Below, one piece after another: positions 1-6,250 of a stretch of DNA of 64,000 bases; position 1 is the first letter of the stretch; the number at the start of each line of letters is the position of its first letter. The notes beneath the pieces were generated by a model. The model was not told where the DNA came from and ran no database searches. It saw only the letters and a list, made by a program, of their open reading frames with translations. This DNA is from Hyphomonadaceae bacterium TMED5 (GTDB lineage: Bacteria; Pseudomonadota; Alphaproteobacteria; Caulobacterales; Hyphomonadaceae). The stretch spans positions 1 through 64,000 of the forward strand of contig NHBK01000011.1 of assembly GCA_002173095.1 (NCBI GenBank), given 5' to 3'. The position numbers and the translations under genes are program-made.

Positions 1-33
1 AATAATCTCTTCAGGCGTAGATCTCTTGCCCAT
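1..33 (-). CDS. Transposase OrfA, IS3-type, N-terminal 11 residues only
   Basis: The frame starting at the minus-strand ATG 33-31 reads MGKRSTPEEII and runs off the left edge. The basic start followed by TPEEII is the usual opening of IS3-family OrfA helix-turn-helix proteins, which bind the inverted repeats. Only eleven codons are visible, so intactness cannot be judged. The position just inside the putative inverted repeat supports the call. Confidence 0.6.
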   Translation of the reverse strand, partial: MGKRSTPEEII

Positions 34-99
34 GTCTCAGCTCCATATCTGAAGCCGGAACTAACTCAAATAATGGACCACTTTTCAGGGAGCAGACCA
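1..99 (-). mobile_element. Terminal fragment of an insertion sequence, probably IS3 family
   Basis: Read on the minus strand, the segment begins TGGTCTGCTCCCTGAAAAG, which has the TG start and purine/pyrimidine pattern of an IS3-type terminal inverted repeat. About 66 bases inside lies an ATG (31-33) opening a frame MGKRSTPEEII, typical of the first residues of IS3-family OrfA. The border is placed at base 99 because the plus strand there ends in CCA. The rest of the element, including its second inverted repeat and any target duplication, lies outside the window, so family and border are inferences. Confidence 0.65.
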
Positions 100-1011
100 G
101 AGACAGGATAAGTCCGGCAGGCCTGCATACGGATCGGGCCGTATGCCATAGCCGATATCTTCGAGTTTCGCAGACGCCAGATAGTGAAGCGTATTCACGT
201 CTTGCTGTTCCCCTCGGTCAAGCGCCGACGCCCAAAGCGCTTCCGGCGGGCAGAAATGTGCCAGCGGTGCAAAATTGAGCGGATTGGGGATTTGGTTCTC
301 ACCGCGCGCTGCAGCGCCATATTCGCGATGGGCCGTGCTCAGGGCAGGGGCCCTAGACACTCGCGCAGTCGGGTGTCCATGCCTTAAATCCTCCAGCGGG
401 CCATCTGAAAATTCAGAGGCGTAGATTCCCGTCTTCACGGCAATTGGCGGTTGAGGGACCACAACCCGCCGCGCCAGATTAAGCGCGAACCGGTCAGCGT
501 GTTCCAGCACATGGGAGAGAAGTTTCAGGCGGGCAAATAAATGCCCGGCGTCCACCAGCTGAAGACGATCCGGCAGAAAAGCGTAATGGCGCGCGCTGCG
601 GCGAATTTTACGTCCGCGCGCTTCAATGACAGGTGTCAGAACAGTGAAAGTGGGAAGGCGGGGCAGGTCGCGAAGCTGGTCGCGTAGGGCTTCATCCTCT
701 CGCTGGGCGAGGGATTTGTCGGCGGCGTTGCGGGCGGCGCGTGGCTTGTGAGGGGTGAACTGTCCCAGCGCAATGAGCTGCGCGGTGAGAAACAGGATGA
801 AACAGCGCAGCATATACTCCAGCCGTTTCACATGGTTGAGGCTTTCGGTCATGAAACGGCGCTGCATATGAGGGCGGATGGATTTGAGGCCCTCTGGCGG
901 GGCTTCGCAGTCGCCCTTTGCGCTATGATGCGTGCCCGCAATATAGCCCTTCAACCGGCGGGCAATTTCCAGCGGGTCATCAGAAGGCATATTGTCAGCG
1001 GCGTTCGACAT
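85..1011 (-). CDS. Unknown protein, C-terminus formed by the insertion sequence end
   Basis: This 308-residue frame starts at the ATG at 1011 and is not one I recognise. It has a single hydrophobic stretch near residues 68-84 and is otherwise rich in Arg, Ala and Pro, with no catalytic motif that I can name. The last residues, WSAP and the stop, are read from TGGTCTGCTCCCTGA, the terminal repeat of the adjoining insertion sequence. The original protein was therefore probably longer and has been truncated. There is no good ribosome binding site before the start. Whether the gene is still functional is unknown; it could be annotated as a pseudogene. Confidence 0.5.
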   Translation of the reverse strand: MSNAADNMPSDDPLEIARRLKGYIAGTHHSAKGDCEAPPEGLKSIRPHMQRRFMTESLNHVKRLEYMLRCFILFLTAQLIALGQFTPHKPRAARNAADKSLAQREDEALRDQLRDLPRLPTFTVLTPVIEARGRKIRRSARHYAFLPDRLQLVDAGHLFARLKLLSHVLEHADRFALNLARRVVVPQPPIAVKTGIYASEFSDGPLEDLRHGHPTARVSRAPALSTAHREYGAAARGENQIPNPLNFAPLAHFCPPEALWASALDRGEQQDVNTLHYLASAKLEDIGYGIRPDPYAGLPDLSCLWSAP

Positions 1012-1060
1012 GCCTTGAGTATGGGGTGGGAGAAACGGCGTTGGATTGTTTTTTGGAGTG

Positions 1061-1087
1061 AATATGTAATATTGTTATTTACATATT
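1061..1087. promoter_or_regulatory. Perfect 9-bp palindrome, putative operator
   Basis: AATATGTAA (1061-1069) and TTACATATT (1079-1087) are exact reverse complements separated by 9 bases in an AT-rich stretch, 41 bases before the start of the DUF7662/ribbon-helix-helix gene. The size and position fit a dimeric repressor site. Autoregulation by the downstream protein is an inference from its ribbon-helix-helix-like C-terminus. Confidence 0.45.
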
Positions 1088-1128
1088 AAATATGATTCGT
1101 AGTAATCCACTAAATCATGGAGTTACAT

Positions 1129-1569
1129 ATGTCCAAATACGCCCCTCTCGCAGAGTTCTTAGCTGACAAGCGCGGAAACGAGATTCCAGTGACCTTCGAA
1201 GAAATTGAACGTTTCCTCGGTTTTACGCTTCCGCCAAGTTGTCAGTACCCAGCCTGGTGGTCGAATAATCGGAGTAATTCGGTGATGACAAATGTCTGGA
1301 TGGATGCGGGCTGGAAAACCAAAAACGTCGACATTGAGGGGCGTAAGCTTACTTTCGTGCGCATGTCGGAAAGCGAGCGCCAGGCCGAAAACGCATCAAA
1401 GGCAAAAGAAAAAGTATATGAAAACTCGCTTCCGGAAGCCGATTTAATGTTAGACTTAGGCCGGCTGGATAGCGTCTCTTTAGGGGTTCTTCGTGTGCTC
1501 GCTCGTCGCAATAAGTGGTCAGTTCAGGATGAAGTTTTGTCTCTGATTAAAGAAGCTCTGGAGGAATAA
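1129..1569 (+). CDS. DUF7662-like domain fused to a ribbon-helix-helix-like C-terminus
   Basis: The product is 146 residues from the ATG at 1129, chosen over the ATG four codons upstream because GGAG lies 6 bases before it. Residues 1-75 match the DUF7662 pattern: YAPLAEFLADK, an acidic E-I-E-R-FLG segment, LPPS, AWWSNNRS, then a beta strand ending LTFVR. Residues 105-146 read like an Arc/FitA-type ribbon-helix-helix: a short strand (DLGRLD), a helix (LGVLRVLARR), NKWSV, and a second helix (DEVLSLIKEALEE). The function of DUF7662 is unknown to me. The following gene starts one base after the stop, so the two form an operon. The upstream palindrome suggests DNA binding and autoregulation, which is inference. 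Confidence 0.7.
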   Translation: MSKYAPLAEFLADKRGNEIPVTFEEIERFLGFTLPPSCQYPAWWSNNRSNSVMTNVWMDAGWKTKNVDIEGRKLTFVRMSESERQAENASKAKEKVYENSLPEADLMLDLGRLDSVSLGVLRVLARRNKWSVQDEVLSLIKEALEE

Positions 1570-1570
1570 A

Positions 1571-1783
1571 ATGACAGTTTTGGAGAGAGTTGAGCAGGTG
1601 CTTGCAAGTGTCCGCCCATCCGCAATCTGCGACGATTGTATGGTGCATAAAGTCAAGGTTGCGCGGCGTCAGCATACGAATAAAAAGTCCAGGACTTTAG
1701 CAGAACGCCCGGGATATTCTCGTGCTGTAGGGACCTGCGCCTCATGTCATTCGACGAATAAATTGGTCGTATGGAAAAAGTGA
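1571..1783 (+). CDS. Small zinc-ribbon-like protein
   Basis: This 70-residue protein starts one base after the stop of the upstream gene, so the two are translationally linked. It carries CDDC near residues 20-23 and CASC near residues 56-59. These pairs would form a four-cysteine zinc site with a basic linker (KVKVARRQHTNKKSR) between them. I do not recognise a family. Short helical N-terminus, zinc ribbon and basic charge are compatible with nucleic-acid or protein binding. Partnership with the DUF7662/RHH protein is inferred from the one-base spacing only. Confidence 0.6.
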   Translation: MTVLERVEQVLASVRPSAICDDCMVHKVKVARRQHTNKKSRTLAERPGYSRAVGTCASCHSTNKLVVWKK

Positions 1784-1824
1784 CTGCCGCTGGATTGAGT
1801 GAGGTAGTTCTGGTCAGGGGAAGC

Positions 1825-2223
1825 CTAGGTAATCGGCTGCTGGCTTTCTTCGCGGCGACTTAGCCAATATCCAAATAAACCACACGTCAGAATGCCGATA
1901 TTGCCTGCAAAATCGAGTACCATCCACTGCGTGAACATTTGGGACACATACACGAAATACCAGTTGAACGCGAAGAAGGGCAGAGACCCGACGAGCCCGA
2001 AAATTAGGAAGGTTCTGGGCGTGAATTGCGACAGAGCGATCACGAGCCCACCCAAAACGGCCTGAGCCCCAAAGCAGCCGAGCAGCAATGCCGATGTTGC
2101 GGAGAGATGTTGATATTCCGGTCTGAGGACCAGGCGTTCAACAGAGTGAGGCGCGATCAGGCACCACCCGCCGAGCCCCAGAAAAATCGCCGCCAATGCA
2201 TACTGAATGTGTTTCGACTTCAT
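1825..2223 (-). CDS. Small four-helix membrane protein, unknown function
   Basis: The 132-residue product has four hydrophobic stretches, near residues 8-26, 42-62, 70-90 and 98-118, with short charged ends, so it is an inner-membrane protein. The start is preceded on the minus strand by a GAGCC sequence, a weak ribosome binding site. It resembles the many small uncharacterised membrane proteins of alphaproteobacteria, and I cannot assign a function. It lies 99 bases downstream of uvrD on the same strand and could be read through from it. Confidence 0.65.
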   Translation of the reverse strand: MKSKHIQYALAAIFLGLGGWCLIAPHSVERLVLRPEYQHLSATSALLLGCFGAQAVLGGLVIALSQFTPRTFLIFGLVGSLPFFAFNWYFVYVSQMFTQWMVLDFAGNIGILTCGLFGYWLSRREESQQPIT

Positions 2224-2322
2224 CGTAGGCTCCTCAACGCAAGCATTTGCGCAGAGGCCATGCGCGACGTTTATTGTAGCGTCTGCGGTGCGTTACGACA
2301 TGCGTCTAATGCACCCTGCGGG

Positions 2323-4638
2323 CTAAGCCGCTTCCAAAAACGTCGCGATGACCTTTTTTGTGCCGGCTTTTTCAAAGTCGACCGTCATTTTCGCGCCTTC
2401 AATCTGTTCCACGCGGCCATAGCCGAATTTGAAGTGGAAGACGCGCTGACCAATGGAAAACGCAGATTTACCGGGCGCAGAGGAGGCGATGAGTTCAGCT
2501 TTGCCATCAATCACAGGTGGGGAGGAGCGCTTGCGATCAGTATTCTTCATGCGCTGCCAGCCGGGTGAGGAATAGGTGCTGCGCTCGCCCAGATCTTCGA
2601 ACGTGTCGCTGGTGGAGCCAAAGCCCGCTTCACCAAAGCCCTGACGCTGGCCATAGCCTGTCTCTGACACGGCCTCGACATTTTCATGCGGCAATTCATC
2701 AACGAAACGGGATGGGATAACCGACTGCCAGCGGCCATAAATCTGGCGATTGGCGACGAAGGAAATGCGGCAGCTTTGCCGTGCGCGGGTAATGCCCACA
2801 TAGGCAAGGCGGCGTTCTTCCTCGAGCCCTTTATTGCCGGTTTCATCGATGGAGCGTTTGGACGGAAAGACTTCCTCTTCCCAGCCCGGCAGGAAGACGA
2901 GCGGCCATTCAAGGCCCTTCGCCGCGTGCAGAGTGAGGATTTGAACTTCATCTTCATTGCCGCCATCGACCGTGGTGTCCATGACCAGCTGGACGTGTTC
3001 CAGAAAGGCCGCCAGGCTGTCGAACTGGCCCATGGCGCTGACAAGCTCTTTCAGGTTGTCGAGCCGGGTGGCCGCCTGTGGGCTGCGGTCTGCGCGCAGC
3101 ATGTCTGTATAGCCGGATTCTTCGAGGATTTGCTCGGCCAGTTCGGTATGGCTCTCGCCCGCATGATGTTTGTCACGCCACATATCCAGATGGTTCATGA
3201 AGCTGGTCAGGCCGCGTTTTGCCGGGCCTTTGACCTCATCCGTCTGGAGAACCATGCGGCAGATGGTAGAGAGCGAGCGGCCATCGCCGCGCGCAATCGC
3301 CTGCAGCTTTTGCAGTGTGGTTGCACCCACGCCGCGCTTGGGCTGGTTCACCACGCGCTCAAAGGCGAGGTCATCATCCTCAGAACGGATCAGGCGGAAA
3401 TAGGCCATGGCATCGCGGATTTCAGCGCGCTCGAAGAAGCGCGGGCCCCCAATCACGCGATAGGGAATGCCCAGCATGATGAAGCGTTCCTCAAAGGCCC
3501 GCATCTGCCATGAGGCGCGCACGAGCACGGCGCAATCAGCCAGCTGGCCACCGCCGCGCTGCCATTGTTCAATGTCATCACCGATCAGGCGGGCCTCGGC
3601 TTCGCCATCCCAAAGGCCACGCAGTTTGACCTTTTCGCCCTTGTCGTCTTCGGTCCAGAGCGTCTTGCCGAGCCGGCCCTGATTGGCCGTGATAAGGTGA
3701 GAGGCGGCGGCGAGAATATTGCCGGTGGAACGGTAATTGCGCTCAAGGCGAATGACTTCAGCGCCGTCGAAATCCTGTTCGAATTTCAGGATATTTGTGA
3801 CTTCCGCTCCGCGCCAGCCATAGATGGACTGGTCGTCATCGCCCACGCAGCAGATATTGCCCGTGCCGCGCGCCAGAAGGCGCAGCCAAAGATATTGGGC
3901 GATATTGGTATCCTGATACTCGTCCACGAGGATGTAGCGGAACTGGTTGAGGTAATCTTCCAGCACATCCGGGTTTTCCTGAAACAGACGGATGGTGAGC
4001 AGAAGAAGATCGCCAAAATCGCACGCATTCAGAACAGACAGACGGCGCTGATAAATATCGTATAGGCGAATGCCTTTGCCATCTGCGAATTGATAGGCCT
4101 CATCCTGAGGGACTTTTGCAGGCAGAAGCGCGCGGTTCTTCCAGCCATCAATCAGGCTGGCGAAATAGCGCGGCGTCCAGCGTTTCGGGTCGATGCCCTC
4201 GGCTTCGATAATCTGTTTGCAGAGGCGGATCTGGTCATCTGTATCGATGATGGTGAAGGTGGATTTCAGATCCACCAGCTCTGCATGGCGGCGCAGGATT
4301 TGCGCAGAAATTGAGTGGAATGTGCCGAGCCAGCGCAGGCCCTCACCTTCATTGCCGATGAGGTTCATGGCGCGCTCTCGCATTTCGCGGGCGGCCTTAT
4401 TCGTGAAGGTCACGCACAAGGTCTGCCAGGGTTTAGCCCGGCCAGTGCGAATGATGTGCGCAAGGCGTGTCGTCAGAACGCGTGTCTTACCCGTACCTGC
4501 GCCCGCCAGAACCAGAAGCGGGCCTTCTATGGTCTCTACGGCTTTGCGCTGTTCAGGGTTCAACCCTTCAAGATAATCAGCGGGACCAGCCGATGGGCGG
4601 GCCATAGCCATTTGGGAAAGCGGGATATTCTCTGACAT
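2323..4638 (-). CDS. uvrD: UvrD/PcrA-type 3'-5' DNA helicase
   Basis: This 771-residue protein is a complete superfamily 1A helicase. Walker A is AGAGTGKT (residues 45-52), motif II is DEYQDTN, and motif III is GDDDQSIYGWRGAE. Motif IV (LERNYRST), motif V (TLHAAKGLEWP) and motif VI (RRLAYVGITRAR) are present. The C-terminus has the Tudor-like segment (GQRVFHFKFGYGRV) seen in UvrD/PcrA/Rep relatives that contacts RNA polymerase or DNA. UvrD removes UvrC and oligonucleotides in nucleotide excision repair and acts in mismatch repair. Length is slightly above E. coli UvrD. The gene appears monocistronic on the minus strand. Rep and UvrD are hard to separate by eye, but the C-terminal segment favours UvrD/PcrA. 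Confidence 0.95.
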   Translation of the reverse strand: MSENIPLSQMAMARPSAGPADYLEGLNPEQRKAVETIEGPLLVLAGAGTGKTRVLTTRLAHIIRTGRAKPWQTLCVTFTNKAAREMRERAMNLIGNEGEGLRWLGTFHSISAQILRRHAELVDLKSTFTIIDTDDQIRLCKQIIEAEGIDPKRWTPRYFASLIDGWKNRALLPAKVPQDEAYQFADGKGIRLYDIYQRRLSVLNACDFGDLLLLTIRLFQENPDVLEDYLNQFRYILVDEYQDTNIAQYLWLRLLARGTGNICCVGDDDQSIYGWRGAEVTNILKFEQDFDGAEVIRLERNYRSTGNILAAASHLITANQGRLGKTLWTEDDKGEKVKLRGLWDGEAEARLIGDDIEQWQRGGGQLADCAVLVRASWQMRAFEERFIMLGIPYRVIGGPRFFERAEIRDAMAYFRLIRSEDDDLAFERVVNQPKRGVGATTLQKLQAIARGDGRSLSTICRMVLQTDEVKGPAKRGLTSFMNHLDMWRDKHHAGESHTELAEQILEESGYTDMLRADRSPQAATRLDNLKELVSAMGQFDSLAAFLEHVQLVMDTTVDGGNEDEVQILTLHAAKGLEWPLVFLPGWEEEVFPSKRSIDETGNKGLEEERRLAYVGITRARQSCRISFVANRQIYGRWQSVIPSRFVDELPHENVEAVSETGYGQRQGFGEAGFGSTSDTFEDLGERSTYSSPGWQRMKNTDRKRSSPPVIDGKAELIASSAPGKSAFSIGQRVFHFKFGYGRVEQIEGAKMTVDFEKAGTKKVIATFLEAA

Positions 4639-4724
4639 GCGTTAGGTACGATTTTCTTGGGGATGATTCGCGTTTCGTTCTACTCTAACATGGGGTGAGA
4701 ACGGGGAAAGTCACGCGCTGGATA

Positions 4725-5411
4725 TCAGCCGCCGATAAACCGGTCCTGAAGCCATAAAATGCTGGGATATGCCGCGATCCATGCGAGCACGAACCGGTTC
4801 AGCCCGAAGAAGATGGCATTGGACAGGTGAAAGCTCGCGGCCAGAATGAGAAACGGGATAAGCGTCCATTGTGAGGCGAGGCTGAGCGGGAATAACAGCT
4901 CGCAGATCATGACCAGCCAGCTGCCCGCCAGAAGCAGGGCTTTCTGATTGGCCAGTGCACGCAGGTTTTCCGCTACCGGATAGGCGGAAAAGGCGAACAC
5001 ATCGCGAAGCGCCCGGCCTGTGCGCCAGTCCGGATTTCTGATCTTCACCCAGCCTGAAATGAAATAGGAAAGCGTGAGCTGCAGCCCCAGATAGCCAAAG
5101 GCGAGCTCTTTCCAGCGTGGTTCTGGTAGGAAATGGGCGAGCGTCAGGCAGAAAAGAATGAGAAGACCCATCTTGTCGGACCCGCCATTATAGGGGCCCT
5201 CAAACCGGTGCAGGATGAGAATGGCAAGCCCACTCATGGCAAGGCACACCCATGGCGCATAAAATCCGGAAACGAGAGCCACACACAGCACTGCCCGTGC
5301 GCTAAACAGGAGGCGCTCTTTCCCGCCGGCCCAGACATGCTCCAGGCTTGGCAGGAATAGGGCGAGGCCGAGCAGGACTTCCGTCCAGCGCATAGCGAGG
5401 TCCAGCGTCAT
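4725..5411 (-). CDS. HTTM-domain membrane protein
   Basis: Starting at the ATG at 5411, which overlaps the upstream stop as ATGA, the product has 228 residues and about six hydrophobic helices. The pattern resembles the HTTM family (horizontally transferred transmembrane domain, related to the membrane part of vitamin K-dependent gamma-carboxylase), for example LSYFISGWVKIRNPDWRTG. Bacterial members are mostly uncharacterised, and the gamma-carboxylase lumenal domain is absent. The four-base overlap shows coupling to the 139-residue upstream protein. Longer starts would extend back inside that gene and are less likely. Confidence 0.7.
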   Translation of the reverse strand: MTLDLAMRWTEVLLGLALFLPSLEHVWAGGKERLLFSARAVLCVALVSGFYAPWVCLAMSGLAILILHRFEGPYNGGSDKMGLLILFCLTLAHFLPEPRWKELAFGYLGLQLTLSYFISGWVKIRNPDWRTGRALRDVFAFSAYPVAENLRALANQKALLLAGSWLVMICELLFPLSLASQWTLIPFLILAASFHLSNAIFFGLNRFVLAWIAAYPSILWLQDRFIGG

Positions 5412-5827
5412 GTCAGCGGCTCCGCTTCGGATACGCAGATGATCTCGTGCGTCAGCGTTTCGCCCTCGCGATGGATAAAGACCAGCCGAAAGCAAAAATG
5501 TGTGGCGCCCGCCGCGCCGCTGAGGTCGCGCTTCATGCGGGCGAAAATCTCACCGGCAGAATGCTCTGGCGTGATGCCTTGCGACAGCCGTTCGGCGCAG
5601 GAGACCAGAAACAGGCTTTCATTCCAGTGACGATTCCAGAATAGCCGCCTCACCATTGTTAAGACGGAGATTTTCTCTGGCCGGGGGCGGAAGGGTTGCC
5701 AGTCTGTGGGGGGCTCATCGCTGGCGCTTAGCAGCGCATATTCAATGCGCGGGGAGGGGGCTATTACGTCAAAGAAATTCCAGGACGGAATAAGCGCGGG
5801 CAGAATGAGCTGAACAGTGCGAAGCAT
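5408..5827 (-). CDS. Unknown protein coupled to the HTTM gene
   Basis: A 139-residue protein is read from the ATG at 5827, preceded by AAAAGG at 10 bases; an ATG pair at 5858-5860 would add 11 residues but has no ribosome binding site. The N-terminus LILPALIPSWNFFDVIAPSPRIEY is followed by a globular, arginine-rich region. I do not know a named family. The gene ends inside the start of the HTTM gene (ATGA overlap), so the two proteins are probably made together and may form a complex. Similar SWxFFD-type proteins are often found beside HTTM genes, but that is recollection, not a search result. Confidence 0.6.
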   Translation of the reverse strand: MLRTVQLILPALIPSWNFFDVIAPSPRIEYALLSASDEPPTDWQPFRPRPEKISVLTMVRRLFWNRHWNESLFLVSCAERLSQGITPEHSAGEIFARMKRDLSGAAGATHFCFRLVFIHREGETLTHEIICVSEAEPLT

Positions 5828-5905
5828 AAAGTGCAGGCCTTTTAAGGTCAGCGGCATCATGTTCTGCGCCGGTTAAGAGAAGCTTGTTGCTGGATTGGTC
5901 CTGCG

Positions 5906-6250
5906 TCAGTGGCCGCCAGATTTTGAGAACACATTGATGGTCACCACGCCAGCGATGATCAATGCGATGCCGATCAAGGCGGGAAGGTCGAGTGTCTGCT
6001 TGTAGAAAATGAGCCCGACCAGCGCGACGAGGATAATGCCAAGCCCGGCCCAGATCGCATAGGCAATGCCGAGCGGAATGCTGCGCAGCGCGACGGATAG
6101 GCAATAGAATGCTGCAATATAGCTTAGAATGGTGATGGCAGACGGGATGATCCGGGAGAACTGTTCGGAGCGTTGTAGAAAGGCTGTGCCCAGCACTTCA
6201 AACAGAATGGCCAGTCCAAGTGCGCCAAGTGAAAGCGTGCTAAACCCCAT
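5906..6250 (-). CDS. SMR-family small multidrug or guanidinium exporter
   Basis: The 114-residue protein has the four-helix layout of EmrE/Gdx-type small multidrug resistance proteins. The essential membrane glutamate lies in helix 1 (FEVLGT, Glu18, equal to EmrE Glu14), followed by AYAIWAGLG in helix 3, the dimer-contact and substrate region. These proteins work as antiparallel dimers in the inner membrane, exchanging protons for cationic drugs or guanidinium. The WAG rather than the Gdx signature favours an EmrE/QacE-like exporter, but the substrate cannot be read directly. The gene begins six bases after the ClC channel gene, so it is likely its operon partner. Confidence 0.88.
   Translation of the reverse strand: MGFSTLSLGALGLAILFEVLGTAFLQRSEQFSRIIPSAITILSYIAAFYCLSVALRSIPLGIAYAIWAGLGIILVALVGLIFYKQTLDLPALIGIALIIAGVVTINVFSKSGGH

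What the first reader, a model, noticed from the sequence alone, without database searches (positions are those of the whole stretch)
1061..1783. Palindrome-controlled DUF7662/ribbon-helix-helix fusion plus zinc-ribbon partner
A two-gene unit with one-base spacing sits behind a perfect 9-bp palindrome. The first protein joins a DUF7662-like domain to an Arc/FitA-like C-terminus, and the second is a tiny four-cysteine protein. Autoregulated small two-gene units next to mobile DNA are often toxin-antitoxin or defence modules. This combination is not one I know to be described, which makes it the best candidate for a new system in this window.
Basis: partly seen in the sequence, partly recalled or inferred. 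Interest (0 to 1): 0.62.

Follow-up and report, generated by a model that had tools for sequence, protein, structure and literature searches.

The report
Antitoxin-like regulator that lacks a toxin
A bacterium carries a small, probably acquired gene whose nearest relatives look like the antidote halves of toxin-antitoxin pairs, but here no recognisable toxin follows and an unrelated small predicted DNA-binding protein sits in its place, so it is more likely a self-controlled regulator than a new toxin or defence system.

Summary
In detail: a 9+9 bp inverted repeat (1061-1087), ORF1 (1129-1569, DUF7662 plus a tail) and ORF2 (1571-1783, four cysteines), one base apart. (1) ORF1's nearest relatives look like antitoxins: its eight best matches in 200 genomes all have a PIN-domain toxin frame directly behind them, as do 21 of 59 other DUF7662 rows, and a tree puts ORF1 among them with modest support. 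No PIN match was found in window 1-6000. (2) The ribbon-helix-helix tail is a sub-threshold match, unlike five relatives' tails. (3) ORF2 is predicted to be a small winged helix with two CxxC motifs, not a zinc ribbon. (4) The pairing is not conserved: 0 of 82 ORF2-family loci hold DUF7662, and of 66 DUF7662 loci only the two copies of the window hold ORF2. (5) The pair lies in a slot whose content differs in three sister genomes. Most likely it is an acquired, autoregulated, toxin-less antitoxin relative with a winged-helix companion. The broader lead, DUF7662 as a DNA-binding part of PIN-toxin antitoxins, is inferred, not shown.

The parts
1061..1087 (.). Inverted repeat AATATGTAA-N9-TTACATATT, candidate operator, ending 41 bases before ORF1's ATG
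   Evidence: In one search, 4 of 21 PIN-paired rows also had an upstream perfect inverted repeat that at most 2 of 200 shuffles reached (L002, L008, L009, L015); the other 17 had none that stood out
1129..1569 (+). ORF1, 146 aa: DUF7662 domain (residues 4-79), linker, and a C-terminus weakly like the FitA ribbon-helix-helix
   Evidence: start chosen because homologues begin M[SA]KY; single-sequence model
1571..1783 (+). ORF2, 70 aa: CDDC family, predicted winged helix with two CxxC motifs
   Evidence: 77 loci in genome contigs and 5 in viral contigs
1059..2280 (.). Variable slot between two conserved blocks (about 100-1058 and from about 2281, uvrD from 2323); G+C 46-48% over ORF1-ORF2
85..1011 (-). 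Conserved left neighbour (308 aa, no Pfam match, many related pieces in the genus)
2323..4638 (-). Conserved right neighbour, UvrD-type helicase ORF (name recalled from its sequence, not scanned)

Best explanation
ORF1 is a horizontally acquired, toxin-less relative of DUF7662 proteins that stand where antitoxins stand, directly before PIN-domain (VapC-like) toxins. It probably acts as a dimeric DNA-binding autorepressor: the DUF7662 domain (winged-helix-like in a low-confidence model) and perhaps the RHH-like tail bind the inverted repeat at 1061-1087 and limit transcription of ORF1-ORF2. ORF2, with a start one base downstream, is a small, probably zinc-stapled winged-helix DNA-binding protein; part of its family lies beside plasmid or conjugation genes. 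Here it sits where the toxin gene lies in the relatives of ORF1. Shown: the domain, the gene layout, the PIN frames behind the relatives, no PIN match here, no recurring ORF1-ORF2 pairing in the loci searched, the variable slot. Inferred: that the relatives are antitoxins, DNA binding, operator, autorepression, dimerisation, zinc, acquisition, and loss of a toxin.
For: The eight best tblastn relatives of ORF1 in 200 genomes (L002-L009) all have a PIN frame on the same strand directly behind or overlapping the DUF7662 frame; so do 21 of 59 non-window DUF7662 rows (20 of 58 distinct genes, as L040 and L047 hold one and the same). One toxin of each of three types (L002, L008, L045) scores over the cut-off of PF01850 PIN, as do those of L002 and L009 by reference. 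Background: 0 PIN frames in 634,272 bases around 82 ORF2-family loci by the same profiles. Tree of 60 DUF7662 domains: window inside a fork of 12 rows, the 11 others all PIN-paired (support 84/92), itself in one of 13 (89/37); PIN label needs 8 changes against 17.5 in shuffles, 0 of 500 as low. No PIN match in six frames of window 1-6000, best E=0.24. Inverted repeat. ORF2 model pLDDT 84.7 with 30 sequences, Z up to 9.8 to winged helices. In three of six sister genomes the two flanking blocks enclose other genes, among them an IS200-like transposase ORF.
Against: The tree has 81 columns, 29 of 56 inner branches are open and the window's place is not starred. 38 of 59 DUF7662 rows have no PIN neighbour, nor have 12 further plasmid loci, so the domain alone does not imply an antitoxin. 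ORF1's C-terminus scored no better than shuffled copies against a profile of five PIN-paired relatives' tails that looked RHH-like to me (1.5 bits; best shuffle 9.4; 500 shuffles). ORF1 was folded from one sequence (mean pLDDT 68.3; 10-residue means 43-56 over residues 91-146) and its best Z is 5.4, which that tool treats as possibly meaningless. A notable upstream inverted repeat was seen in only 4 of 21 PIN rows. No sigma-70-like promoter or terminator was found at 950-1900.
Confidence: 0.58

Rival explanations
1. Toxin swap: ORF2 has replaced the PIN toxin and works as the toxin or effector of a rare new toxin-antitoxin pair with ORF1 as antitoxin.
For: ORF2 starts one base after ORF1, in the position the toxin has in relatives. 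Both domains also occur in one protein with related GIY-YIG-like parts (ORF2 family in L031, DUF7662 in L035; both GIY-YIG matches below the Pfam cut-off; E=1e-12 between the two parts).
Against: 82 of 82 ORF2-family loci lack DUF7662, and a toxin would usually need a constant antitoxin; I found no constant partner, though one unidentified cluster lies directly upstream in most of 12 of 81 loci. The predicted fold is that of DNA-binding proteins.
Confidence: 0.12
2. Chance neighbours: two independently acquired small regulator genes in a variable slot, co-transcribed but with no joint function.
For: No conserved pairing; variable slot. Among 398 genomes DUF7662 is in 22 and the ORF2 family in 6 (own included); besides the own genome both are in G620, on different contigs, and in G679, where the ORF2 match is weak (E=8e-4, a stop inside).
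Against: One-base spacing with a ribosome-site-like GGAGG at ORF1's end suggests translational coupling (read). Without the own genome, 2 of 21 genomes with DUF7662 and 3 of 376 without it have an ORF2 match (one-sided Fisher p=0.024), a faint sign of co-occurrence that rests on the weak G679 match and ignores kinship.
Confidence: 0.23
3. Decayed remnant: the unit is a degenerating VapBC-like module with no present function.
For: No PIN match and no recognised toxin-binding tail in ORF1.
Against: Both frames are intact with ribosome-site-like sequences, and the invariant cysteines and conserved domain residues are kept.
Confidence: 0.07

Closest known systems
VapBC / FitAB type II toxin-antitoxin systems (PIN-domain toxin, PF01850)
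   Same: Relatives of ORF1 lie directly before PIN frames with short overlaps or gaps; an inverted repeat lies upstream here and in some relatives
   Different: No PIN match here; the N-terminal domain is DUF7662, and the FitA-like match is sub-threshold and C-terminal
PF24698 DUF7662
   Same: ORF1 residues 4-79 match over the curated cut-off
   Different: A module of several settings: short proteins without PIN neighbour, proteins before PIN frames, and one protein with HNH_2 or DUF4268, or with a sub-threshold GIY-YIG part
Winged-helix DNA-binding domains (Z-alpha, SelB, MarR and others)
   Same: ORF2's predicted fold
   Different: 70 aa with two CxxC motifs; conserved stretch RQHANHKTREL on the predicted third helix, partly changed in the window; no sequence match in the PDB at E up to 1

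Membership tests
PF24698 DUF7662 | Score over the curated cut-off | tested here: met
   53.3 against 26 bits
VapBC / FitAB | PIN-domain toxin gene in the operon | tested here: not met
   no PIN match in six frames of window 1-6000 with three home-made profiles, best E=0.24; ORF2 has no PIN match in Pfam
VapBC / FitAB | Antitoxin with an RHH or other known DNA-binding domain | tested here: inconclusive
   PF22513 FitA-like RHH 15.5 and 18.5 bits against 27; low-confidence helix-helix in the model
VapBC / FitAB | C-terminal toxin-binding tail of the antitoxin | tested here: inconclusive
   the window tail scored below several shuffles against a profile of five relatives' tails; the other tail types were compared by eye only
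VapBC / FitAB | Toxicity neutralised by the antitoxin; operator binding | not testable with these tools
   needs the bench
   the model is a winged helix and the listed matches are mostly winged helices; a family that is not listed is not excluded, and cysteine geometry could not be measured
Conserved two-gene system DUF7662 + ORF2 | Recurrent neighbourhood | tested here: not met
   0 of 82 ORF2-family loci hold DUF7662; of 66 DUF7662 loci (some of one and the same place) only L001 and L039, both the window, hold ORF2; 0 of 12 further plasmid loci
PADLOC defence models | Match to a defence protein model | tested here: not met
   0 families for ORF1 and ORF2 at E up to 1

The most novel reading that the evidence does not exclude
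DUF7662 is an undescribed winged-helix-like operator-binding domain that defines a widespread class of modular antitoxins with interchangeable toxin-binding tails, and the window shows a module in which the PIN toxin has been exchanged for a zinc winged-helix protein, turning a toxin-antitoxin system into a two-protein regulator.
Probability: 0.15. Interest if true: 0.6.

Novelty: new variant of a known kind. Interest (0 to 1): 0.36.

Why it matters
If right, a domain of unknown function gets a testable role (a DNA-binding part of PIN-toxin antitoxins), and a toxin-less member shows how an antitoxin can become a plain regulator. The two-gene unit by itself is not a recurring system in what was searched.

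Tried and rejected
Conserved pair: rejected. Homology of ORF1's tail with the RHH-looking tails of L006, L007, L008, L015 and L131: not supported; whole proteins of all five and tails of four of them show no RHH family in Pfam. ORF1's domain and ORF2 as sister domains: no alignment by sequence or profile. A PIN of the L002 type elsewhere in the window's genome: none, but that answer had no positive control. Viral DUF7662 relatives: none confirmed in viral contigs with three queries, none in phages. A shared operator word of the PIN-paired loci: some 6-mers are enriched (AATAGT in 6 of 20 against 1.1 expected, AGTTAC in 5 of 20 against 1.0), but many words were compared and loci without PIN show the like (AGTTA in 12 of 38 against 2.8), so I claim no motif. 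A constant partner of the ORF2 family: the commonest ORF clusters reach 16 of 81 loci and look like shadow ORFs; one cluster of 12 loci lies mostly directly upstream on the same strand and stays unidentified. ParB-, DUF736- and S26-like stretches lie in 26, 26 and 25 of 82 loci, but only 3 of 82 have the ParB-like end within 600 bases upstream. PDB by sequence: no relatives of either family at E up to 1; one weak match of the tail, E=0.81. Literature: 'DUF7662' in 0 papers of the held library; five more searches, of which I saw listings only, showed nothing on this; no paper was opened.

Full report
Observation. The inverted repeat, the two ORFs and the one-base gap are as described. ORF1 matches DUF7662 well over the cut-off; the FitA-like RHH match is below its cut-off. 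ORF2 has no match over a cut-off in Pfam or NCBIfam, and in PHROGs, which has no cut-offs, one at E=0.22. Neither ORF matches PADLOC at E up to 1.

Relatives of ORF1. In 200 related genomes, 24 (own included) have a match. Reading the DNA behind each, I found that many DUF7662 ORFs are followed at once by a PIN ORF. A count over the DUF7662 loci then held (searches of relatives, class, phylum and family, plus two plasmid loci; 60 rows after removing identical or contained ones, window included) gave 21 of 59 non-window rows with a PIN frame next to them, or 20 of 58 distinct genes. The loci are not an even sample of the domain. The eight best relatives of the window ORF are all in that set; the next one, L025, is not. 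One toxin of each of three types matches PF01850 over its cut-off. With the same profiles, 634 kb around ORF2-family loci gave no PIN frame. Many rows without PIN are short. In 12 further plasmid loci no PIN frame was found; in some of those DUF7662 lies in one protein with HNH_2 or DUF4268. A GIY-YIG-like part follows DUF7662 in L035 (16.7 bits against 22.6), and a Haloplanus protein with DUF7662 is annotated as GIY-YIG, though my scan showed only DUF7662. NCBIfam named none of the five DUF7662 proteins that I gave it.

Tree. Sixty domains, 81 columns: the window falls in a fork of 12 rows whose other 11 are all PIN-paired (84/92), itself in one of 13 (89/37). These forks are not starred, so this is support, not proof. 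No PIN match is visible in window 1-6000, and the genome has one DUF7662 copy.

The tail. To my eye five PIN-paired relatives have RHH-like tails. A profile of these tails gave the window tail 1.5 bits, less than several of 500 shuffles (best 9.4). So ORF1's tail is not shown to be related to them, and the RHH label rests on the weak Pfam match and a low-confidence model.

ORF2. Its family has 77 loci in genome contigs, by my reading of the titles all alphaproteobacterial but two (L071, L073), and 5 in viral contigs, two of which repeat genome loci. A second copy lies elsewhere in the window's genome. In the 30 rows aligned (29 of the 82 loci and the window) the cysteines are invariant and most of RQHANHKTREL is conserved; 80 of 82 loci keep both CxxC motifs. 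The model is a winged helix, with Z up to 9.8 to Z-alpha, SelB and similar domains; Foldseek's best match, a MarR regulator, has E=0.026 and none reaches 0.001. In 26 of 82 loci a ParB-like stretch lies within the 4 kb flanks. In L031 the family is fused to a GIY-YIG-like part (21.1 against 22.6 bits), which resembles the one in L035 (E=1e-12): a hint that both domains can serve similar enzymes, not that they pair.

Pairing. None of 82 ORF2-family loci holds DUF7662, and of 66 DUF7662 loci only the two copies of the window hold ORF2. In 398 genomes the families occur in 22 and 6, together in 3 with the window's own, and not as neighbours in the other two. Without the own genome, 2 of 21 against 3 of 376 is a faint excess (p=0.024) that rests on one weak match. 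The pair is not a recurring unit in what was searched.

Setting. The left neighbour and the uvrD-like gene are conserved in order in three of six sister genomes (G001, G004, G006), with different genes between them, among them an IS200-like transposase ORF in each by eye (PF01797 tested on the G001 copy). Within the genus one of six other genomes has DUF7662 (G002, before a PIN frame) and none has ORF2. G+C is 46-48% over the pair against 54-63% in the windows clear of it.

Verdict. A probably acquired and autoregulated, toxin-less antitoxin relative with a winged-helix companion. The more useful result is the DUF7662-PIN association, which I did not find in the held literature (one search on the name) and which can be tested.

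Noticed in passing
window 85-1011: A 308-aa protein without Pfam match has relatives in every genome of the genus searched, own included (7 of 7; 5 to 10 matching pieces a genome, some genes giving two pieces).
   Followed up: no
window 1-100: The first 100 bases, at a contig end, recur at 97-100% identity in several places of sister genome G006, some of them contig ends, and at lower identity in G003, as an insertion sequence would.
   Followed up: no
L189 1082-1567, and similar ORFs in L190 and L191: An IS200-like transposase ORF (PF01797, tested on L189) lies in the slot that holds ORF1-ORF2 in the window.
   Followed up: partly
L031 979-1686: An ORF2-family domain fused to a GIY-YIG-like part (21.1 bits against a cut-off of 22.6).
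   Followed up: partly
L195 1207-2457: An archaeal plasmid protein (Thermococcus barophilus) carries DUF7662 inside 416 aa, directly after a gene annotated as ribonuclease J.
   Followed up: no
L099 2650-3894 and similar ORFs in 11 other ORF2-family loci: An unidentified ORF cluster, possibly a shadow frame, lies mostly directly upstream of ORF2-family genes on the same strand.
   Followed up: no
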